Of a DNA stretch of 8,643 nucleotides, positions 3-7,783 are shown piece by piece; the first letter of the stretch is position 1, and every line of letters begins with the position of its first letter. The notes beneath the pieces were generated by a model, which worked only from the letters and a program-made list of their open reading frames with translations, searched no databases and had not been told where the DNA came from. The DNA is taken from the NCBI GenBank assembly GCA_016840125.1, contig JAEOSY010000662.1, positions 1 to 8,643 on the forward strand, in the 5' to 3' direction. Source of the stretch: Candidatus Helarchaeota archaeon. Lineage in GTDB: Archaea; Asgardarchaeota; Lokiarchaeia; Helarchaeales; HEL-GB-A. Made by a program: the position numbers and the translations under genes.

Positions 3-464
3 CTTGCTGAAGAGCTACAGTCACAAGGCATTAAAACTATTTTTTATTGTTCTGGACACGGAGATCACGTGAAATTCTTAGAGGAAATCTCAGAAAAAAT
101 ACGTGCCGAATTAAAAATGAATGCCTATGTGCTTTATCCGTTTTTCGAAGATGCGGCAATTATAGCGAAATTTAACGAGATAAAAACAAGTAAAAGTATT
201 TATGATTTCTTTCATGCCGAAGAACTCGAGACTAGTCTGGTCCTCGCTATTTCACCCCATTTAGTTCAAATGAAAGAGGCCAAAGTTGAATACCCCGATA
301 TTTCCGAAGAAGACTTAACGTCTGAAAAACGATTAGGAGATCTTACCAAATTTTGTCTTTTTGGCGATCCAACAGCAGCCACCGCGGAGAAGGGACGCCA
401 ATTTATTAAGATAATGCTTGATGAACTTTTAAAAATTATAGATAATCTTAAACTATCTCTTTAG
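3..464 (+). CDS. Creatininase-family amidohydrolase, 3' part (5' end outside the window)
   Basis: The frame is open to the left edge, so the GTG at 69 is internal, not the start. The residues before it (GIKTIFYCSGHGDH) match the family's NGHGGN region, whose His is a metal ligand; here it reads SGHGDH. Further on, HAEELETSLVLAISPHLV matches the family's HAGxxETSLMLAL block, and FGDPTAATAEKG matches its C-terminal GDPxxATAEKG block. The family comprises metal-dependent amidohydrolases: creatininase, enzymes acting on formamides of pterin/flavin pathways, and MftE, the peptidase that trims the mycofactocin precursor. The substrate cannot be read from this fragment. The gene converges on the radical SAM gene, with only 9 bases between the two stop codons, so it is not in the same transcript. 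A link to the neighbouring peptide-modifying genes through MftE is possible but unproven. The family call is firm; the specific function is unknown. Confidence 0.88.
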   Translation, partial: LAEELQSQGIKTIFYCSGHGDHVKFLEEISEKIRAELKMNAYVLYPFFEDAAIIAKFNEIKTSKSIYDFFHAEELETSLVLAISPHLVQMKEAKVEYPDISEEDLTSEKRLGDLTKFCLFGDPTAATAEKGRQFIKIMLDELLKIIDNLKLSL

Positions 465-473
465 AATCTACTG

Positions 474-1475
474 TTAAACACTATCCTGAAATGGACACAG
501 GGGATCTGAATCAAAAATAGTTCCTTTTAATGAATATGTTACTAGTTTGCATCCACCTTTACAGAGATGAAATTTTTGGCAGGAATTACAATAACCCGTC
601 ATTTTCCTCTTGAATTTTTTAGGATTTCGGAATAATTTGACTAATTCTGTTGATAAAATTTTCTTTAAATCCATTTCCAAAAGGGATCCACAATTAAAAT
701 CATATAAAATACATGGTATCACATTCCCCTTCGCGGTAATCGTAATTACATCCTTAAAAACTTCACAACAGAGGCCCGAGATCTCTTTTGTAATTAGCCG
801 GGAAGCGGGTACTGAGCAGAGTTCGACCTCATATCCTGCCTCATACTTCTCTTTGGACAACTCAATTAACTCTCGGCATTGAGCTGGGGATAAAACCTGG
901 TCCACAAGCTGCTTCCCTGCTCCAAAAGGAACGAATATGCCAAAATTAATATCAAGGGCCTTTAATTTATCATAAAGTTCAAAAAACGGTGCAAAATCTT
1001 TGAAATTCCACTTACCGAGGGTAACATTTATCCCAATTGGAAATTCAGCAAGCAATTTATTTTCTAATACCTTCATCAAATGTAGAAATTGCCCCTCACC
1101 CCTAACAAAATCATGAGTCTCTGGTCTTGCTCCATCAAAACTCACAGGAAGCGCACTAATAATATCTAGACGACGTTCAATTTCAGCAATAATTGTTGGA
1201 TCTTTTAATTTAATTCCGTTAGTGTTAATAACCACATCTTCCATACCGCAATCATTAGCATAATCAACAATTTCGAATATATCATTTCTGATTAAGGGTT
1301 CCCCTCCAGTCAAAATAAGGGATGTTACTCCTCCTTTCGAGATTTTCTCGATTATAATCTTAACTTCCTCTAAATTTAATTGAATCCCCCCTAAATCCTG
1401 CCGATAACAGTGTCTACAATCCATATTACAGGCATTTGTGATTTCAAAAAGTGCTATAGCTCTTTTCAATTTCAT
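474..1475 (-). CDS. Radical SAM/SPASM domain peptide-modifying enzyme, copy 1
   Basis: A radical SAM enzyme of about 333 residues. Numbered from the ATG at 1475, the [4Fe-4S] cluster motif is CxxxCxxC at C16/C20/C23, followed by the SAM-binding GGEP at 57-60. The C-terminus is a complete SPASM domain: C-x12-G-x4-C, then C-x2-C-x5-C-x3-C (C296/C299/C305/C309) and a final Cys (C327), enough to hold two auxiliary clusters. SPASM enzymes (AlbA, PqqE, MftC, epimerases and cyclophane formers) mostly modify ribosomal peptides. It has no N-terminal RRE/PqqD-like extension. An ATG at 1496 lies directly after the upstream stop, but the ATG at 1475 has AGAGG seven bases upstream and matches the N-terminus of the paralog at 4808-5833, so I prefer it. 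The two paralogs share long blocks such as DQVLSPxQC, CGSLLEMD and CKLVTY. It is the last gene of the minus-strand block and directly follows the UPF0489 gene. The actual modification is unknown. Confidence 0.93.
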   Translation of the reverse strand: MKLKRAIALFEITNACNMDCRHCYRQDLGGIQLNLEEVKIIIEKISKGGVTSLILTGGEPLIRNDIFEIVDYANDCGMEDVVINTNGIKLKDPTIIAEIERRLDIISALPVSFDGARPETHDFVRGEGQFLHLMKVLENKLLAEFPIGINVTLGKWNFKDFAPFFELYDKLKALDINFGIFVPFGAGKQLVDQVLSPAQCRELIELSKEKYEAGYEVELCSVPASRLITKEISGLCCEVFKDVITITAKGNVIPCILYDFNCGSLLEMDLKKILSTELVKLFRNPKKFKRKMTGYCNSCQKFHLCKGGCKLVTYSLKGTIFDSDPLCPFQDSV

Positions 1476-1482
1476 GGATTTT

Positions 1483-1487
1483 CCTCT
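1483..1487 (-). promoter_or_regulatory. Ribosome binding site deciding the start of radical SAM copy 1
   Basis: AGAGG on the minus strand lies seven bases upstream of the ATG at 1475 and within the codons that would follow the ATG at 1496. It favours the shorter protein. Confidence 0.6.
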
Positions 1488-1496
1488 ACCCTTCAT

Positions 1497-2263
1497 TTAA
1501 ATTTCTTCAATATACTCCTTGAAAACCGGAATTAGATCATCAGCGCTTTTCGGGGTAAACCCTGGTGATTGACTTAGGACGATGAGTGAAAATGGTTCTT
1601 TATTTTTATAATTCCACAAGCGAACCCTCTCTAACGGTACTATTAATGGTTCTAAGGCATCAGGTGTTGTCTCATAAAACTTTTTCTTATATTTGCGATT
1701 TAATTTTTTCTTATCATACATCTTCAGCTGTAATTGGCCTGTCGGCACATAATAATCCTTAAAATAAAAGGTTACTAAATCATATCTCCAATATGGATGG
1801 ATGACGAAAACTAACTTGTTAATCCAGCGACATGCTAAGGCGAACGCCAAATAATTAGCAGGATTTAAGCTACTTCCTACATCCTCCTTTGGATACCAAC
1901 GCTCTTTGACGGGTTTATGTAGGAGCTCTCCCATGATATATTTCCAGCTTTTATCACCTAAACCTAAATCTGCATGGGCATCTACATGCACAACTACAAA
2001 AGGAATCTGTAATTCATCTTTTTCAATTAATTCCCTCCAGAAAAGAAAAGCGCCATCATGACGTTCGACAATCCTCCCTAATACCTTCTTAGCCTTTGAT
2101 AATCCACATTGATCCTCGAGAAATCTTCGTACCTCTTCTTCTGACCACGGGTGATATTTTTTCTCCTTCAATCGTTTCTTACTGCGTTTGGAGTACCTGA
2201 TATTGTCCAGAAAAAAGTCTAAGTCAATATCTAAAACTCTATTCGCCGTAAAATTCCCTTCAT
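1497..2263 (-). CDS. UPF0489-family protein, peptide arginase-like; 5' end unresolved (possible frameshift)
   Basis: The canonical frame opens at TTG 2171 (224 residues). It contains VVHVDAHADLG (HVDAHAD at 62-68 from that TTG), the arginase-like HxDAHxD metal site of UPF0489, preceded by an IVERHD segment and followed by LSQSPGFTP near the C-terminus. The same frame continues upstream of the TTG to about 2240 and encodes RVLDIDLDFFLDN, the family's other signature, so the TTG product would lack a conserved motif. No ATG, GTG or TTG lies in frame between the upstream stop (2307-2309) and 2171. An ATG at 2263 is one base out of frame; one extra base in the GGG or TTTT run at about 2252-2258 would join it to this frame. 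Characterised UPF0489 members (OspR-type) hydrolyse peptide Arg to ornithine beside radical SAM enzymes. Here the gene sits between an Arg-rich small-protein gene and a SPASM gene. The family call is strong; arginase activity is inferred. A lesion, assembly error, non-canonical start or programmed shift could explain the 5' end. Confidence 0.8.
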
Positions 2264-2298
2264 CCTTTAAGTTCCAAAAAAAGAGAGAAAATTGACTA

Positions 2299-2706
2299 TT
2301 AAGATCTCACTTTCTCGCTGATTCTTTTTTCGTCTTCTTCGTCCTCATCAGCTAAATCGTCTAACTGACTCAAAATCTCTCTATAAATCTCAGACTTAAG
2401 GACTTCTCTTGCTTCTCCCGTTGGATCTTCCCGAACCTCTTCAATTTCAGGCTCAACTTCTCTTAGTGTCTCATCCGCAATATCATCTATCCATTTTTTA
2501 TATTCAGAATCTGAGCTAGGTACTCGAGTAAATGTCTTTTTAATTCCCTTCTGGATCGATTTTTTTAATCCTGATCCTTTCTTTACTGATTTTCGAATTT
2601 TCCGGGAAATCGTTCCATGCATTCTTCCTTCAACTCTTTTAAACCCTCGTTGTATAACAGACGCTTGCCGTTCAAAAGTTCTAGAAATCCGTCTAAAAAA
2701 ACCCAT
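2299..2706 (-). CDS. Small DPTGE-module protein 1: basic N-terminus, acidic C-terminus (putative modification substrate)
   Basis: A 135-residue protein of no family I recognise, paralogous to four neighbours. Residues 1-62 hold 20 Lys/Arg and only 2 acidic residues, begin MGFFRR, and include RGFKR, a motif recurring in the paralogs. They look like cationic amphipathic helix. Residues 73-110 carry the shared module, with ADETLREVEPEI leading into DPTGE at 94-98 and then REVLKSEIYRE. The C-terminal 25 residues are strongly acidic (LADEDEEDEKR). There is no Cys, membrane segment or signal peptide. Unlike the other four, it has two extra residues between the ETLRE helix and DPTGE. The start is supported by GGTGAG six bases upstream and by the MGF start shared with three paralogs. 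It appears to have its own promoter, and its 3' end abuts the UPF0489 frame. It is a plausible substrate for the neighbouring radical SAM and UPF0489 enzymes; a structural or DNA/membrane-binding protein is the alternative. Confidence 0.85.
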   Translation of the reverse strand: MGFFRRISRTFERQASVIQRGFKRVEGRMHGTISRKIRKSVKKGSGLKKSIQKGIKKTFTRVPSSDSEYKKWIDDIADETLREVEPEIEEVREDPTGEAREVLKSEIYREILSQLDDLADEDEEDEKRISEKVRS

Positions 2707-2760
2707 TCTATTCTCACCTATTGTATTTGTTCTTTATTTTTGAATAACTATTATTAATTA

Positions 2761-2770
2761 ATATATAAAT
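2761..2770 (-). promoter_or_regulatory. Putative archaeal TATA box for small protein 1 and downstream genes
   Basis: On the minus strand this reads ATTTATATAT, a good archaeal TATA element. It sits about 55 bases upstream of the ATG at 2706, so transcription could start near 2740 and leave a short leader containing the GGTGAG ribosome binding site. A 12-base palindrome lies immediately upstream of it. This would make small protein 1, UPF0489 and radical SAM copy 1 a separately controlled unit within the block. Confidence 0.5.
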
Positions 2771-2782
2771 TAGAGTACTCTA
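2771..2782. repeat. 12-base perfect palindrome next to the TATA box, candidate operator
   Basis: TAGAGTACTCTA is its own reverse complement. It abuts the upstream side of the putative TATA box, where transcription factor B and regulators bind in archaea. I saw no second copy elsewhere in the window. It may be an operator or chance. Confidence 0.35.
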
Positions 2783-2823
2783 TTAACTCCCTTGCAGAAT
2801 TATCAAATAAGAATAAAGGTGTT

Positions 2824-3387
2824 TCATCTTAGAACAAGCCACGCCGCGAGGACAATTCCTTCTGAAATTCCGCCGTAGAGGGCACCATTGACTAATCCTT
2901 GATAGAGGACGTTCGCCGGCTCAAAAACAAATCCCAGCGGATCAACATATACCATATGTGGAAAAATAATATTCCCCGGAGGAATCATACCTGGTATGAC
3001 ATATGCGAGCGATAAAAGTATTCCAAAAATTACAGCCGGAACTCCAATAAAGAGCAACGCTTGCAATATGATTGGACTTTTAGGAGGAATAATTAAATGC
3101 GCTTCACGGGCATCTGCTAATTTAGAGACTTGCTTATAAACCTTAGCTTTAATATCCTCCATCGATTTACCGGTCGGATCTGCTTTGAGCTCAGGTTCTA
3201 ACTCCTTCATAACATCATTTGTGATATTTTTAACCATCTGTTGCTTTTCGGATGGTGAAATGTCTGATTTTTTATAAAGGGCCTTCAATTTCGTTTGAAT
3301 TAGTTCTCCTATTCTATTAGATTGTTTACCATAAAATTCAAACTTAAAAGTTCCTGCAGATATAATTGGCTCATTTGCTTCACCCAT
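2824..3387 (-). CDS. Small DPTGE-module membrane protein 2 (DPTGK variant, two-helix membrane hairpin)
   Basis: A 187-residue protein paralogous to the one at 3482-4072, of no known family. Residues 1-45 differ from the paralogs: it starts MGEANEPIIS, not MGF, and lacks the dense Arg/Lys region. Residues 48-90 hold the shared module, with ITNDVMKELEPEL leading into DPTGK at 70-74, the only copy in which the Glu is Lys. After LADAREAHLII come two membrane segments, about 104-133 and 164-186, joined by a Pro/Gly-rich loop (PGMIPPGNIIFPHMV). It has no Cys and no cleavable signal. A GGAG lies ten bases upstream of the ATG. The missing basic region suggests it is not a substrate in the same sense as its paralogs. 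It could be a membrane partner, an immunity protein or a scaffold. The membrane hairpin is evident; the role is unknown. Confidence 0.85.
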   Translation of the reverse strand: MGEANEPIISAGTFKFEFYGKQSNRIGELIQTKLKALYKKSDISPSEKQQMVKNITNDVMKELEPELKADPTGKSMEDIKAKVYKQVSKLADAREAHLIIPPKSPIILQALLFIGVPAVIFGILLSLAYVIPGMIPPGNIIFPHMVYVDPLGFVFEPANVLYQGLVNGALYGGISEGIVLAAWLVLR

Positions 3388-3481
3388 ATTTTCAACGCTC
3401 CTTTTTTTTTATCAAACAACAATCCTATCTAAGAAATAAAAAAGTTCTTTTAAAATACAAATTTTGTTATTTTCAATTGGT

Positions 3482-4072
3482 TTATTGTAGGATTTTCCAA
3501 GCAAGCAATGCGATCCCTTCAGTAGCGCCCCCATATAATGCCCCATTGACAATACCTTGATAGAGGACGTTAACCGGCTCAAAAACAGCTGGCCCACCCG
3601 TGGGGGGTGTTACCATATGTGGAAAAATGATATCCCCTGGAGGAACCGCCCCCGGCATAACGTAGGCTAGTGATAAAAATATCCCAAAAACTATTGCTGG
3701 AACTCCAATAATGAGGATTACTTGCAATATGACCGGAATTTTAGGATGAATAATTAAATGAGCTTCACGTGCATCCGCTAATTTAGTGGCTTCCCGATAG
3801 ATATCCGCCTTTAGAATCTCCCTCGTTTCACCGGTTGGATCTTTTTGGAGTTGGGGTTCCAACTCTCGCATGGTTTCATTTGTTATATCGTTCAACATTT
3901 TTTGCCTTACATTTGGTGATATGTCTGCGCTTTTATAACGAGCTTTTAGTTGCTTTTTGATAGATTTATCTATTTTCCCCTGATGCTTTCTAAATCCTCT
4001 CGAAACCCTTCTACCCGAATCGCGAAGTGCTCTTCCTGCTCTCTTCCAATGTGACTTTTTAAAAAAACCCAT
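3482..4072 (-). CDS. Small DPTGE-module membrane protein 3 (basic N-terminus plus membrane hairpin)
   Basis: A 196-residue protein joining the two architectures of this family. Residues 1-48 start MGFFKKSHWKR and contain 18 Lys/Arg against 2 acidic residues, including SRGFRK. Residues 58-98 carry the shared module, with ITNETMRELEPQL leading into DPTGE at 78-82 and then TREILKADIYRE. Residues 101-196 are the membrane hairpin of its neighbour: LADAREAHLII, a helix at about 112-139, a loop with PPGDIIFPHMV, and a helix at about 172-194. By the positive-inside rule the basic region should be cytoplasmic, where the radical SAM and UPF0489 enzymes act. GTGAT six bases upstream fits the archaeal anti-Shine-Dalgarno sequence. 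There is no Cys. The family is unrecognised; modification substrate, membrane anchor and membrane-active cationic protein are all possible. Confidence 0.87.
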   Translation of the reverse strand: MGFFKKSHWKRAGRALRDSGRRVSRGFRKHQGKIDKSIKKQLKARYKSADISPNVRQKMLNDITNETMRELEPQLQKDPTGETREILKADIYREATKLADAREAHLIIHPKIPVILQVILIIGVPAIVFGIFLSLAYVMPGAVPPGDIIFPHMVTPPTGGPAVFEPVNVLYQGIVNGALYGGATEGIALLAWKILQ

Positions 4073-4092
4073 TTAAATCACTTAAAGAAGAA

Positions 4093-4452
4093 TCATTCTC
4101 TTAGTTGTTCTTCTACTTGTCGGGTGACTTCTGCCTCGATTTCCGCTTTTGCTACCTCTCTAGTTTCTCCAGTAGGATCTTCGGGTAATTCTGATGCGAC
4201 TTCTCTGAGTGTCTCTTCAGTTACCTCTCTAATTATCTGTTCTTTCTTCGTAATCGCCACTTTTTTATCACCGAATTTCTTGAATTTGCCCTTAACCTTC
4301 GATTTTATTCCACTCGCCTTACCATTTACTATTCTTCGGAATCCTCTTCGGATTTTTCGGCTCTCTCTTCTGAATCCTCTTTTGATACTTGAACCCGATC
4401 TTTTGAAATTACTTCCTACCCTTTTCCAATGATTTTTTTTCCAAAATCCCAT
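4093..4452 (-). CDS. Small DPTGE-module protein 4: the most basic, with an 11-residue RGFRR repeat
   Basis: A 119-residue protein from the ATG at 4452. In-frame GTG 4461 and ATG 4458 are alternatives, but the start at 4452 gives the MGF N-terminus of three paralogs (MGFWKKNHWKR). Residues 1-70 contain 27 Lys/Arg and 2 acidic residues. Residues 23-44 form a tandem 11-residue repeat, IKRGFRRESRK then IRRGFRRIVNG, a spacing that suits an amphipathic helix on a membrane or polyanion. The shared module covers about 72-108, with VTEETLREVASEL leading into DPTGE at 92-96 and then TREVAKAEIEAEV, after which the protein ends with no membrane segment. There is no Cys. It lies 20 bases from its downstream neighbour and 31 from its upstream one, consistent with one operon. 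Among the five it is the strongest candidate substrate for an arginine-modifying enzyme. Function is unknown. Confidence 0.85.
   Translation of the reverse strand: MGFWKKNHWKRVGSNFKRSGSSIKRGFRRESRKIRRGFRRIVNGKASGIKSKVKGKFKKFGDKKVAITKKEQIIREVTEETLREVASELPEDPTGETREVAKAEIEAEVTRQVEEQLRE
4108..4148. repeat. 41-base direct repeat, copy A (3' end of small protein 4)
   Basis: It matches 4499-4539 with one mismatch (G at 4138, A at 4529). Both copies encode the AEIEAEVTRQVEE tail of their proteins. Such DNA identity between otherwise diverged genes points to recent duplication or gene conversion. Confidence 0.85.
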
Positions 4453-4483
4453 ATTCATCACTCATCTCATGATCATTAGTGTC

Positions 4484-4762
4484 CTATCTTCGTAAATATT
4501 CTTCTACTTGTCGGGTGACTTCTGCCTCAATTTCCGCTTGTACAACCGCGCTCGTTTCACCCGTAGGATCTACTGGTAAGTCCGACTTGATTTCTCTGAG
4601 TGTCTCAGCTGTAATTTCTTTGATTAATTGTTCTTTCATCGAATCCAAGGGCGCCTTACCACCTAAATCCCCAATTTTGATTTCTATTTTTGATTTAATC
4701 GCACTCGAAATTTTGTCAATTCTCCTTTTGGAGAATCTAGCTATTCTTCCAATAAAACCCAT
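4484..4762 (-). CDS. Small DPTGE-module protein 5: shortest copy
   Basis: A 92-residue protein, nearest paralog of the one at 4093-4452. It begins MGFIGRIARFSKRR, has a moderately basic region to about residue 30, then a GDLGGKAPLD linker, and the shared module at about 44-80, with ITAETLREIKSDL leading into DPTGE at 65-69 and a tail of AEIEAEVTRQVEEYLRR. The coding DNA for the tail is nearly identical to that of the paralog over 41 bases. There is no Cys, membrane segment or signal peptide. The GG in the linker recalls a leader cleavage site, but it lies N-terminal to the conserved module and has no counterpart in the paralogs, so I do not read it as one. It is the first small gene after radical SAM copy 2 (45 bases downstream). 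It is probably the minimal form of this family. Confidence 0.82.
   Translation of the reverse strand: MGFIGRIARFSKRRIDKISSAIKSKIEIKIGDLGGKAPLDSMKEQLIKEITAETLREIKSDLPVDPTGETSAVVQAEIEAEVTRQVEEYLRR
4499..4539. repeat. 41-base direct repeat, copy B (3' end of small protein 5)
   Basis: This is the second copy of the repeat at 4108-4148, in the same orientation, with a single base difference at 4529. Confidence 0.85.
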
Positions 4763-4807
4763 ATCTCATCAACACTAATAATTATAAGTTGAATACGTTA
4801 ACATACA

Positions 4808-5833
4808 TTACTTTTTAAATTGATCTGATGGAATTTCTTTGTTTGCAATTGGACAGAGCGGATCGGATTCAAAAATTGTACCTTTAAATGCGTAAGTTAC
4901 TAATTTACATCCTCCAGTACAAACCTCAAATTCGGAACACGTCTTACAATATCCCTCAATTTTGTTACGAATTTTTACTGGATCTGAAAATGTTTGGATT
5001 ATTTGATTTGCGAAAATTTCATCCATATCCATTTCTAATAATGACCCACAATCATATTTATGAATATATAAGCAAGGGACAACATGTCCTTGAGCAGTAA
5101 TATTGATGAACTCAGTAAAAAGATTGCAACAACTTGTTAATTCCCCATAGAGATTTGCATATGGTACAAAACAGAATTGAACTAGATATTTCTCTTCTAA
5201 TTTTTGTTTTGCCATTTCAATCATCTTATGACATTGAGTGGGCGAAAGGACTTGGTCTTTTAAGAGATCTCCCTTTCCCAGGGGAAGAAACGGGAGAAAA
5301 TTATAATATTTGCCATTAAACGTCTTACTGAGTTCGAAAAAGGCATTAAACTCTTGGAAATTCCATTTGCCTATTGCTATGTTCAACCCGAGTGGGAGCT
5401 CCCTTAATTCTTTCCTTCGTAGTATTTGTATTAATCTATCAAATTCCCCCTTACCCCTGATGAAATCATGTGTCTCAGCAGTAGCTCCATTAAAGCTGAC
5501 CATTATTGGCCCAATCAGATCTCCACGCTTCTTTATCTGCTTGATAATCGTCGAATTATCCAACAAAGTACCGTTTGTAGTAAAGGCAATTTCTTGAATA
5601 CCACAATCCTCAGCTGTATCTATAATTTCAAAGATTTCTTCTCGGAGAAACGGTTCCCCCCCAGTGAGAACTAGATCTGTAACTCCATAGGCACATACTT
5701 TTTCCAAAATGGTTCTTATCTGGCTGAGAGTTAATTCTTTACTAAAATCGTTTTTAAAACAGTGTTTGCATTTTAAATTGCATCTGGTCGTAATTTCAAA
5801 GAGAAGTGTGGCATTCTCAAGCGTTTTTATCAA
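4808..5833 (-). CDS. Radical SAM/SPASM domain peptide-modifying enzyme, copy 2
   Basis: A 341-residue paralog of the enzyme at 474-1475. The cluster motif is CxxxCxxC at C18/C22/C25 and GGEP is at 58-61. The SPASM domain is complete: C-x12-G-x4-C, then C296/C299/C305/C309 and C327. Shared blocks include ETHDFxRGxG, GKWNF, DQVLSPxQC, CGSLLEMD, CKLVTY and KGTIFxSDPLCP; the middle third and the last 14 residues differ most, so the two may act on different substrates or residues. It has no RRE extension. The start is the TTG at 5833. GGTGG lies one base upstream, unusually close, but no other canonical in-frame start exists before the conserved LFEIT segment. It follows the phosphoesterase stop by 12 bases, suggesting translational coupling, and precedes the five small genes. 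A peptide-modifying role is inferred from family and context; the chemistry is unknown. Confidence 0.93.
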   Translation of the reverse strand: MIKTLENATLLFEITTRCNLKCKHCFKNDFSKELTLSQIRTILEKVCAYGVTDLVLTGGEPFLREEIFEIIDTAEDCGIQEIAFTTNGTLLDNSTIIKQIKKRGDLIGPIMVSFNGATAETHDFIRGKGEFDRLIQILRRKELRELPLGLNIAIGKWNFQEFNAFFELSKTFNGKYYNFLPFLPLGKGDLLKDQVLSPTQCHKMIEMAKQKLEEKYLVQFCFVPYANLYGELTSCCNLFTEFINITAQGHVVPCLYIHKYDCGSLLEMDMDEIFANQIIQTFSDPVKIRNKIEGYCKTCSEFEVCTGGCKLVTYAFKGTIFESDPLCPIANKEIPSDQFKK

Positions 5834-5845: not shown

Positions 5846-7783
5846 TTATTTTTGAAATAACCATTGCTGGGGATAGGCATCTCCAGGACCTTGTAGGAGG
5901 GCGCCATTGGGATATCGGGCGCTAATGGTGCAATTCGTCCCATCAATTTCAACTTGGATATAATGATACGCTTGTTCCCCATATTCAAGTCCTAGTTGCT
6001 GCCAAGCATCGTGATATGATTCTTCCTCCGGAAGGTGATAGTAATATTTTCCGAGATCTCCCGGTGCCCAATGGGTATAATTTTCTGGGAAGCCCGCATG
6101 AGTTAGATATTTTGATGCGTTCCAAGGTCGCCGCTCATAAATTATATCCTGATATTGATTGAGATTTTCATCCCACCAATGTACTGTACTTGTTGCTAAC
6201 ATCCGATCTGGGTTTAAAACGCCATAATCCACCTCTAAATTGGCACCACCCCCGCCAGAGCAGAAGTAATGGACCTCATTGTGGATCCAATCATGTGATT
6301 CGTCATATACCAACCCATTCCACCCATATGTGTAATTATAATGTTGATAATCATGGTCATGTGCAAAAAATACGGCATCGACAGCGAGTTCATCAAAAAT
6401 TGGTACGAGTTGTTGTTGTAAATTCCAATACATTCCTGTAGTGGCGGTGGTCATCATACTCAAATGGAAGAAACAAAATACCCAATCTTGCCCATTAGCA
6501 TGTGCTTGGGTAATATCCTCGCGAATCCAGTTCCGCTGAGTATCGCTCATCAAGTAGACATGTTCAAAATTATCAATCATGACGAAATGAGCATTATGAT
6601 AATCAAAGGAGAAATACCGTCCCATGTTAGGGTTCGCATAGGGGTAAGTAAAGAGTTCTGCCCAGTTAGAAGTTCCAATAAACGTATTCCAATCATGATT
6701 GCCAATCACAGCTTGAATGGGAGTATTCGCAGCCATCCTCGAAAAGCTATTAAACACCCGATGCCAATCCTCGAGATCACTTCCCTCATTAGCTACATCG
6801 CCAAGCTGACAAATGAAATCAAATTGCTCCTTTATGATTCCATCTGCAACCATCCCGCCTTTACTCTCCATAAGTGCATTAGTGGGTTGCATGTCCCCAA
6901 CAATGGCAAACTTGAACGGCGCTTGAATTGATGAAGCGGTGGTAAAATTAAAAATTGTAGAAGCGTGAGCTTGCTCAAAAGTTTCGGGTATGTAATAGTA
7001 ATAGCTGGTGTTGGGATTTAATCCCTCCAAATAGACTTTATGTAAATAATTACCTGACCCAATTGCGGTTTCATTAAGATTGCTGGCATTTGTTCCGTAA
7101 TAAACCATGGACGAATTACTTTGAGCCGTTAGCCAGGAGATACAAATGCTTTCATTCGGCTTATTATTATGCCAAGTTAGCCATGGACCATCATTATGCC
7201 CATTTCCATTTAAAATATTAGGGGGCGGGAAGGTAAGAAAATTCGTATTGATGAAATAAAAGGCAAAACTGGAGAGAATTAATAGCAGTGTGGCGATAAT
7301 CGCAAATAATGGAAATTTTATTTTCTTTATTTTGGTCATCCTAATGCTTACTGCACTGAAATAGAATAAATAGCCAACAATAAGGAAGATCAAAGTGGAG
7401 GCGACAACGAGCAAGAAATGAAGACTGGAAGAGGCTTCGAGAGTTAAATTGTTAAAATCAACCGGTATTATATAAAGGATTGAAATAATGAGCGAAAATA
7501 ATAGGCTTATAATAATAATAAAGATCCAGCGAAAATTTACCCGTCCCCATTGAAAAAGATTTCGAAATTTTTTGCTTTTGGCAAGTAAAAATGTGAAAAG
7601 AATTGCTACCACAACCCCAGAAATACTAAGGCTTAATGGGATTTCATAACCTTCAATATAGTGGCTAAGAAATGATAGAGCTACAGTACTCGTTACCAAT
7701 AATACGGTCGCCGCAGCAAATCCAATTGTGATGAAGATGTATTTAACGATTCTCCCGAATTTTGTGGTAGGTGGCTGACTCAT
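5846..7783 (-). CDS. Membrane-anchored purple acid phosphatase-like metallophosphoesterase
   Basis: A 645-residue protein. Five membrane helices fall at about 13-40, 48-68, 85-106, 121-147 and 157-181. The basic loops KSKKFR and RMTKIKKIK should be cytoplasmic, so the C-terminal part faces outward. Residues about 200-283 resemble the fibronectin-III-like domain before purple acid phosphatase cores (ESICISWLT, LNPNTSYYY). The catalytic metallophosphoesterase domain follows with the metal-binding series GDMQ (D297), GDV (D329), GNHD (361-364), H440 and HDH (H475, H477). Several N-x-S/T sequons fit a surface glycoprotein. The ATG at 7783 has GGAGAG five bases upstream. It is the first gene of the minus-strand block and is closely coupled to radical SAM copy 2. 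Phosphoesterase activity outside the membrane is likely; the substrate, and any functional link to the peptide genes beyond operon position, are unknown. Confidence 0.9.
   Translation of the reverse strand: MSQPPTTKFGRIVKYIFITIGFAAATVLLVTSTVALSFLSHYIEGYEIPLSLSISGVVVAILFTFLLAKSKKFRNLFQWGRVNFRWIFIIIISLLFSLIISILYIIPVDFNNLTLEASSSLHFLLVVASTLIFLIVGYLFYFSAVSIRMTKIKKIKFPLFAIIATLLLILSSFAFYFINTNFLTFPPPNILNGNGHNDGPWLTWHNNKPNESICISWLTAQSNSSMVYYGTNASNLNETAIGSGNYLHKVYLEGLNPNTSYYYYIPETFEQAHASTIFNFTTASSIQAPFKFAIVGDMQPTNALMESKGGMVADGIIKEQFDFICQLGDVANEGSDLEDWHRVFNSFSRMAANTPIQAVIGNHDWNTFIGTSNWAELFTYPYANPNMGRYFSFDYHNAHFVMIDNFEHVYLMSDTQRNWIREDITQAHANGQDWVFCFFHLSMMTTATTGMYWNLQQQLVPIFDELAVDAVFFAHDHDYQHYNYTYGWNGLVYDESHDWIHNEVHYFCSGGGGANLEVDYGVLNPDRMLATSTVHWWDENLNQYQDIIYERRPWNASKYLTHAGFPENYTHWAPGDLGKYYYHLPEEESYHDAWQQLGLEYGEQAYHYIQVEIDGTNCTISARYPNGALLQGPGDAYPQQWLFQK

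What the first reader, a model, noticed from the sequence alone, without database searches (positions are those of the whole stretch)
474..5833. Candidate undescribed archaeal peptide-modification system: two SPASM radical SAM enzymes bracketing five paralogous small proteins and a UPF0489 enzyme
Seen: seven genes bounded by paralogous radical SAM/SPASM enzymes, with five small proteins sharing one module and one UPF0489 gene, all on one strand with short gaps. Known: SPASM enzymes typically modify ribosomal peptides, and some UPF0489 proteins (OspR-type) are peptide arginases in radical SAM RiPP clusters. Inferred: the small proteins are the substrates, giving a system with multiple substrates and two maturases. 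Unlike classical RiPPs, the putative substrates are long (92-196 residues) and two carry membrane hairpins, so the products may be modified membrane proteins, not released peptides.
Basis: partly seen in the sequence, partly recalled or inferred. Interest (0 to 1): 0.9.

Follow-up and report, generated by a model that had tools for sequence, protein, structure and literature searches.

The report
Asgard enzymes paired with arginine-rich proteins
A gene cluster from an Asgard archaeon pairs two radical enzymes and an arginase-like enzyme with small, mostly basic, partly membrane-bound proteins that they probably modify chemically; the same trio recurs in another Asgard genome, but the chemistry is untested.

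Summary
The cluster is real: eight genes (not seven) on the minus strand, 474-5833: two SPASM radical SAM enzymes (48% identical), five homologous small proteins, one UPF0489 gene. The trio recurs: one independent Asgard genome (G130) holds a SPASM, a small protein and UPF0489 side by side, and six further contigs appear to carry both small protein and UPF0489. In that larger family the small protein typically has an N-terminal hydrophobic segment, a tract with Arg:Lys 468:50 (354:622 elsewhere in the same proteins), the shared module and a hydrophobic hairpin. This supports enzymes dedicated to modifying resident membrane-associated proteins, with Arg-to-ornithine the likeliest UPF0489 reaction. 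Limits: the UPF0489 subfamily has its metal motifs in permuted order relative to OspR and lacks OspR's Glu11, though all six metal ligands are kept; the window gene has no usual start codon; small protein s2 lacks the basic tract; the module also occurs in a genome with no detected UPF0489 or close SPASM; the hairpin occurs in other Asgard genomes without them; no leader, exporter or recognition domain was found. New variant of a known kind, testable by co-expression and mass spectrometry.

The parts
4808..5833 (-). SPASM-B2, radical SAM/SPASM enzyme, 341 aa (TTG start)
   Evidence: Pfam PF04055 2.7e-19 and PF13186 1.3e-07; closest to the G130 SPASM that sits next to the Arg-tract protein, 51.4% identity, support 90/91
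4484..4762 (-). small protein s5, 92 aa, basic N-part plus shared module, no hydrophobic segment
   Evidence: leave-one-out E 3e-18; alignment
4093..4461 (-). small protein s4, 122 aa (shared MGF start suggests translation from Met4), strongly basic N-part, shared module
   Evidence: leave-one-out E 4.9e-23; N-part 10 R, 12 K, 7 aromatic of 61
3482..4072 (-). small protein s3, 196 aa, basic N-part, shared module, hydrophobic hairpin with Pro/Gly loop (PPG, PPTGGP)
   Evidence: leave-one-out E 2.9e-28; alignment with G130 protein
2824..3387 (-). small protein s2, 187 aa, aromatic but not basic N-part, shared module, hydrophobic hairpin
   Evidence: leave-one-out E 3.1e-17; N-part 1 R, 4 K of 36; close relative P0003, also without tract
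2299..2706 (-). small protein s1, 135 aa, basic N-part, shared module
   Evidence: leave-one-out E 3.5e-18
1497..2249 (-). UPF0489 protein of a permuted arginase-like subfamily; called ORF 1497-2171 (TTG), open frame continues upstream past LDIDLDFF (2231) to about 2306; codon aligned with a homologue's start is ACG 2249-2247
474..1496 (-). SPASM-B1, radical SAM/SPASM enzyme, 340 aa
   Evidence: Pfam PF04055 1.4e-17 and PF13186 1.3e-08; 47.6% identical to B2, 51.1% to a SPASM in G084
5846..7783 (-). possible first gene of the same transcript: membrane protein with purple-acid-phosphatase-like domain; probably not part of the system
   Evidence: PF00149 1.6e-12, PF16656 1.2e-10; 12 bp from B2; relatives at E<=1e-60 in 8 of 227 Asgard genomes, neither G130 nor G084 among them

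Best explanation
The cluster encodes a dedicated protein-modification system of Asgard archaea. The small proteins are the substrates and stay in the cell: most have a basic, aromatic-containing amphipathic N-terminal stretch, a conserved helical module, and in many members hydrophobic anchors. The SPASM enzymes most likely oxidise or cross-link side chains in the N-terminal stretch (aromatic residues followed two positions later by Arg/Lys are a plausible target), and the UPF0489 enzyme, a binuclear-metal hydrolase with an arginase-like fold in permuted order, most likely removes the guanidine group of Arg in the tract, giving ornithine. In the window lineage the set has expanded to two SPASM enzymes and five substrates. 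Shown: the genes, the homology, the recurrence, the Arg bias in the larger family, conserved ligand positions. Inferred: that the small proteins are substrates, which residues change, and the reaction of each enzyme.
Against: G082 has the module but no UPF0489 hit at E<=1e-5 and no close SPASM. G084 has a close SPASM but no hit for small protein or UPF0489. UPF0489 is absent from 20 of the 21 genomes nearest G130, itself included, so the system is patchy. Six contigs over 15 kb carry the small protein with no UPF0489 row of equal length (62238, 90512, 59851, 53748, 31032, 15339); this is weak, because G130's own contig (17278), which has both, also shows no UPF0489 row of that length in the 120 listed. 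s2 and P0003 lack the basic tract, and window tracts have about equal R and K. OspR's Glu11 is replaced in nearly all rows (E in 2 of 102 readable of 120). Aromatic-x-Arg is largely helix periodicity: R at +2 in 97 of 104 after F but also 211 of 251 after V/I/L. UPF0489 relatives on three bacterial plasmids have no listed radical SAM gene within 6 kb (that gene table is incomplete).
Confidence: 0.45

Rival explanations
1. A conventional RiPP pathway: the small proteins are precursors with a long follower or leader, and a modified peptide is cut out and exported.
For: Radical SAM plus UPF0489 arginase is a RiPP enzyme combination in print (PMC10028609 and PMC12257519 passages); several similar precursors per pathway are known (FlmA1-3, PMC12703449). 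A creatininase-family gene lies convergent at 3-464 with a weak match to MftE, 42 bits against a cut-off of 172.
Against: No exporter, RiPP recognition domain or co-directional protease by Pfam among the ten window proteins scanned, nor among three G130 neighbours scanned (the rest of that region was only listed as ORFs). Substrates are 92-249 aa, and 29 of 36 large-family members begin with a hydrophobic segment.
Confidence: 0.15
2. The UPF0489 enzyme is a small-molecule ureohydrolase, for example in polyamine synthesis, and the SPASM enzymes act on the small proteins alone or on a cofactor.
For: In G130 UPF0489 is convergent, 18 bp apart, with a spermidine-synthase gene followed by a BpsA branched-polyamine-synthase-like gene. 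Glu11 is not conserved. The best-scoring named SPASM model is heme b synthase AhbD, though at 143 against a cut-off of 500 bits.
Against: No polyamine genes among the window proteins scanned; UPF0489 lies directly between a small protein and a SPASM there; the Arg excess is confined to the tract.
Confidence: 0.25
3. The Arg tracts bind lipid, nucleic acid or another protein and are not enzyme substrates; the gene neighbourhood reflects a shared regulon only.
For: Amphipathic periodicity of basic and hydrophobic residues at 3, 4, 7; predicted continuous helix from N-terminal segment through tract (low confidence pLDDT 68.6); hairpin-only proteins occur without the enzymes.
Against: Recurrent neighbourhood in distinct Asgard assemblies and a SPASM gene 23 bp from the small-protein gene in G130.
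Confidence: 0.2

Closest known systems
Landornamide pathway: peptide arginase OspR with radical SAM epimerase OspD (PMC10028609 passages; PMC12703449 first part and passages)
   Same: UPF0489-family hydrolase with the same six metal ligands together with a radical SAM enzyme and Arg-containing ribosomal substrates
   Different: In OspR the motifs run EEHNEAF, DxHxD, LDIDIDYF; here LDIDLDFF comes first; Glu11 not conserved; the substrate is a RiPP precursor peptide there, a longer, often membrane-associated protein here; OspD is an epimerase
Biphenomycin-type pathways pbs/bip: MNIO + arginase PbsE/BipC + B12 radical SAM on an FRF motif (PMC12257519 and PMC12707348 passages)
   Same: Arginase and radical SAM enzyme acting next to Phe-Arg motifs
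   Different: No MNIO among the window genes and the radical SAM enzymes are SPASM type; the published pathways have short precursors and a maturation protease
Triceptide maturases (XncB, YhhB and others; PMC11002830 passages)
   Same: SPASM enzymes linking an aromatic residue to Arg at i+2
   Different: No membership shown; the aromatic-x-Arg pattern here may be helix periodicity
Stand-alone Asgard membrane-hairpin proteins (about 92 aa)
   Same: Related hairpin with PG loop, hhalign E 1.5e-07
   Different: No Arg tract or module; different neighbours

Membership tests
Peptide arginases (PF12640, OspR/FlmR/PbsE type) | Pfam UPF0489 score over the curated cut-off | tested here: met
   43.7 bits over 27 for the open frame; 37.6 for the called ORF; but only profile positions 3-85 of 167 match
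Peptide arginases (PF12640, OspR/FlmR/PbsE type) | six Asp/His ligands of two Mn ions | tested here: met
   counterparts invariant in 18 of 18 rows, compared with ligands listed in PMC10028609; two of them lie upstream of the called TTG start
Peptide arginases (PF12640, OspR/FlmR/PbsE type) | motif order EEH..., DxHxD, LDIDLDYF as in OspR 8BRP | tested here: not met
   HMM matches 8brp in two pieces in swapped order (the second piece weak); LDIDLDFF first in 109 of 120 relatives, DxHxD first in 0, one motif unreadable by the pattern in 11
Peptide arginases (PF12640, OspR/FlmR/PbsE type) | Glu11 next to the His ligand, proposed to stabilise guanidine in OspR | tested here: not met
   E in 2 of 102 readable rows, 18 of 120 unreadable; R in the window
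Peptide arginases (PF12640, OspR/FlmR/PbsE type) | arginase three-layer fold | tested here: met
Peptide arginases (PF12640, OspR/FlmR/PbsE type) | NCBIfam FlmR/OhkR model cut-off | tested here: not met
   24.5 bits against 350 for the called ORF
Peptide arginases (PF12640, OspR/FlmR/PbsE type) | hydrolyses peptidyl Arg to ornithine | not testable with these tools
   needs biochemistry
SPASM peptide/protein maturases | CX3CX2C radical SAM motif plus complete SPASM cysteine set | tested here: met
   Pfam hits; in B2 C18/C22/C25, C236-X12-G-X4-C254, C296-X2-C-X5-C-X3-C309, C327, conserved in the three aligned enzymes (the pattern definition is recalled)
SPASM peptide/protein maturases | membership of a characterised maturase subfamily (NCBIfam cut-off) | tested here: not met
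   none of the best 25 shown of 92 (B1) or 85 (B2) families reaches its cut-off; best 143 bits against 500
SPASM peptide/protein maturases | RiPP recognition element fused or nearby | tested here: inconclusive
   no PqqD-like domain in the Pfam scan at E<=1 of ten window proteins; such domains are often missed by Pfam (recalled)
RiPP gene cluster | short precursor with leader and core, protease, exporter | tested here: inconclusive
   substrates 92-196 aa, no exporter or co-directional protease in the window; but the contig ends on both sides, so parts could lie outside
Triceptides | aromatic-X-X target motif with SPASM three-residue cyclophane synthase | tested here: inconclusive
   F followed by R at +2 in 97 of 104, V/I/L in 211 of 251

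The most novel reading that the evidence does not exclude
Asgard archaea convert arginine-rich amphipathic helices of resident membrane proteins into ornithine-rich, radically cross-linked segments, using a permuted arginase and a SPASM enzyme. This would be a lasting modification of membrane proteins, not natural-product synthesis, and in some lineages the ornithines could be extended by neighbouring aminopropyltransferases to give protein-bound polyamines.
Probability: 0.2. Interest if true: 0.88.

Novelty: new variant of a known kind. Interest (0 to 1): 0.6.

Why it matters
If right, it extends radical SAM/arginase chemistry from small precursor peptides to resident membrane-associated proteins in the archaeal relatives of eukaryotes, and it points to an arginase-like subfamily with rearranged motif order whose substrate is open. 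The prediction is sharp and cheap to test: mass shifts of -42 Da per Arg and -2 Da per cross-link on a 90-250 residue protein. The human member of the same Pfam family, C5orf22, has unknown function (PMC10028609 passages), so a protein-level substrate would bear on it too.

Tried and rejected
Own-genome search: no genome is held for the window; the protein table gives 8643 as the longest contig for window proteins, so the window is probably the whole contig. Viral contigs: SPASM, UPF0489 and small-protein queries gave 57, 153 and 112 pattern matches and no confirmed relative, so a viral origin has no support. Defence system: only viperin-like general radical SAM similarity in B1 and B2; rejected, since viperins lack SPASM (recalled). 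Rfam and tRNA: nothing. Promoter and terminator scans within the shuffle range (20 against 27.4, 8 against 7.1) and not suited to archaea. DUF5908 match of s4/s5 (18.3 and 21.8 bits against 27.7): below cut-off. Third module hit G195 (E 0.006 inside a 688-residue frame; also the best non-family ORF in four of the five leave-one-out runs, E 0.001-0.0061): taken as a chance coiled coil, not proven. Triceptide chemistry as main reading: demoted because V/I/L show nearly the same Arg spacing as F. Recent duplication of the SPASM pair: unlikely, B2 pairs with G130 (90/91, not fully supported) and B1 is nearest G084.

Literature searches whose listings showed no report of this system by title or abstract start: (one library of open papers; listings are capped). 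PMC12144867 (passages) reports archaeal RiPP mining and mentions Asgard and radical SAM classes, with no occurrence of arginase or ornithine in its main text. PMC11291487 was seen as passages only.

Search of the SPASM profile in Asgard genomes scored at most 9 candidates per genome.
Full report
What is there. The 8643-base window is probably a whole contig; no genome is held for it. On the minus strand lie, in order of transcription, a membrane phosphatase (5846-7783), SPASM-B2 (4808-5833), five small proteins s5-s1 (4484-4762, 4093-4461, 3482-4072, 2824-3387, 2299-2706), a UPF0489 gene (1497-2171) and SPASM-B1 (474-1496). Flanking genes on the plus strand are a creatininase-family protein (3-464) and an enolase-superfamily protein (from 7887). 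Enzyme assignments are by Pfam over the curated cut-offs.

The small proteins are one family. Leave-one-out profiles find each of the five at E 3.1e-17 to 2.9e-28 among 4717 sequences; the best of 1000 shuffles over the five runs scored E 0.0061. All share a module with invariant DPTG. s2 and s3 add a hydrophobic hairpin with one strong arm (2.60, 2.78) and one weak arm (1.57, 1.09) on the Kyte-Doolittle scale. Four of five have a basic, aromatic-containing N-terminal part; s2 does not: one Arg and four Lys in 36 residues.

Relatives. A profile of the five found in 5.8 billion proteins only window proteins, P0003 and a weak P0005. Among 227 genomes of the phylum of a Helarchaeota assembly (Asgard) it found clear matches in two, G082 and G130. 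In G130 (contig C15; NCBI name Promethearchaeota archaeon for the identical protein) the relative is a 228-residue protein, followed after 23 bp by a SPASM enzyme and flanked upstream, on the opposite strand, by a UPF0489 gene. A profile including this protein found 44 clusters, named Promethearchaeota, Hermodarchaeota or Hodarchaeota where a source gives a name. The UPF0489 profile found 994 clusters, 120 listed; 30 of these are 65% or more identical to G130 and carry Asgard names, or 'marine sediment metagenome', where named; the next named ones are methanococci and Paenibacillus. A family search found UPF0489 only in G130 among 21 genomes, G130 and its 20 nearest, so the gene is patchy.

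Linkage. Contexts of these clusters could not be read, but the tables give the longest contig of each. Of 41 small-protein and 40 top UPF0489 clusters, 6 pairs share exactly the same length and a common source; 79 more distant UPF0489 clusters give 0; near-misses of 1-10 bases number 6 and 5. So the two genes probably sit on one contig in about six further assemblies. Six contigs over 15 kb with the small protein have no such match; that says little, because G130's contig, which has both, has none either.

Anatomy of the larger family. Of 36 clusters analysed, 29 have an N-terminal hydrophobic window. Then come a tract such as FIRRISRAFRRVSRRV, AKTDPKIF, the module, and the hairpin with a loop like IPPGSLIIPE..PPTGG. 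In these 36 of 40 clusters the tract holds 468 Arg and 50 Lys in 1213 residues, one acidic residue and no Cys, while the rest of the same proteins holds 354 Arg and 622 Lys in 6357. The members are homologous, so this is one family's property, not 36 trials. Arg over Lys in one segment fits a guanidine-specific role: substrate of an arginase, or binding of phosphates. The window's own tracts are mixed Arg and Lys. The model of the G130 protein, pLDDT 68.6, gives one long helix through N-terminal segment and tract, further helices for the module and two for the hairpin. The window profile matches the family at hhalign E 1.4e-10, though basic composition may help that score.

The SPASM enzymes. 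In a tree of 12 rows B1, B2, G130 and G084 form a clade with support 100/100; B2 pairs with G130 (90/91) and B1 is nearest G084, 51.1%. In 227 Asgard genomes only G130 and G084 score far above the rest (631.6 and 451.7 bits; the next is 141.5; at most 9 candidates scored per genome). In G084 no small-protein relative or UPF0489 was found, so this type of SPASM may also work without UPF0489. They match no characterised subfamily at its cut-off.

Most likely mechanism. SPASM and UPF0489 modify the N-terminal parts of the small proteins, the module being the best candidate for docking because it is the part common to all five (inference). s2 keeps aromatic residues but no tract, so it could be a SPASM-only substrate. 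Arg-to-ornithine by UPF0489 enzymes has precedents that also involve radical SAM enzymes and Phe-Arg motifs (PMC12257519, PMC12707348; passages), and SPASM cross-links from an aromatic residue to Arg two positions on exist (PMC11002830 passages). Here the aromatic-x-Arg spacing is mostly helix periodicity (97 of 104 after F, 211 of 251 after V/I/L), so I do not lean on it.

Against. The module occurs in G082 without these enzymes being detected; genome completeness is not told. The hairpin alone matches at 11 places in 10 Asgard genomes, G130 included, many beside a dehydrogenase-like gene and acetyltransferase-like genes (naming recalled from sequence), so it is a reused anchor. In G130 UPF0489 lies next to polyamine synthase genes, which allows a small-molecule role. 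Relatives on three bacterial plasmids have no listed radical SAM neighbour.

Verdict. Observation confirmed with corrections; interpretation partly supported. It works like a radical SAM plus arginase modification system but is not shown to be a RiPP cluster, and the UPF0489 enzyme fails tested features of the characterised peptide arginases (motif order, Glu11, NCBIfam cut-off). New variant of a known kind.

Noticed in passing
window 1497-2306, minus strand: UPF0489 frame is open to about 2306 and holds LDIDLDFF at 2231, but no ATG/GTG/TTG before it; the codon aligned with a homologue's start is ACG.
   Followed up: partly
L042 13620-15646: In G130 a spermidine-synthase-like gene and a BpsA-like branched-polyamine-synthase gene lie directly beside UPF0489, on the opposite strand.
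   Followed up: partly
L060, L061, L063-L070: A family of about 92-residue membrane-hairpin proteins with a PG...FPKY loop recurs in Asgard genomes, many in a conserved neighbourhood, with no SPASM of this clade beside them.
   Followed up: partly
L043 16548-16868: Stand-alone module protein starting MGF in G082, with no UPF0489 in the genome at E<=1e-5.
   Followed up: partly
L101 9483-10828: In G084 a SPASM of the same clade is preceded 68 bp upstream by an 80-residue ORF with a hydrophobic-looking segment and no Pfam match; it may be another substrate.
   Followed up: no
window 3-464, plus strand: Creatininase-family gene, cut by the contig start, convergent with SPASM-B1; weak match to mycofactocin peptidase MftE, 42 bits against 172.
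   Followed up: no
L103, L104, L105: UPF0489 relatives on Agrobacterium, Rhodococcus and Rhizobium plasmids, beside genes such as an ATP-binding protein, a Fic protein, ABC transporter genes and hypothetical proteins.
   Followed up: partly
phage records H10-H14: Five Streptococcus suis phage records match only residues 25-116 of a 245-residue UPF0489 relative, across two hypothetical proteins.
   Followed up: no
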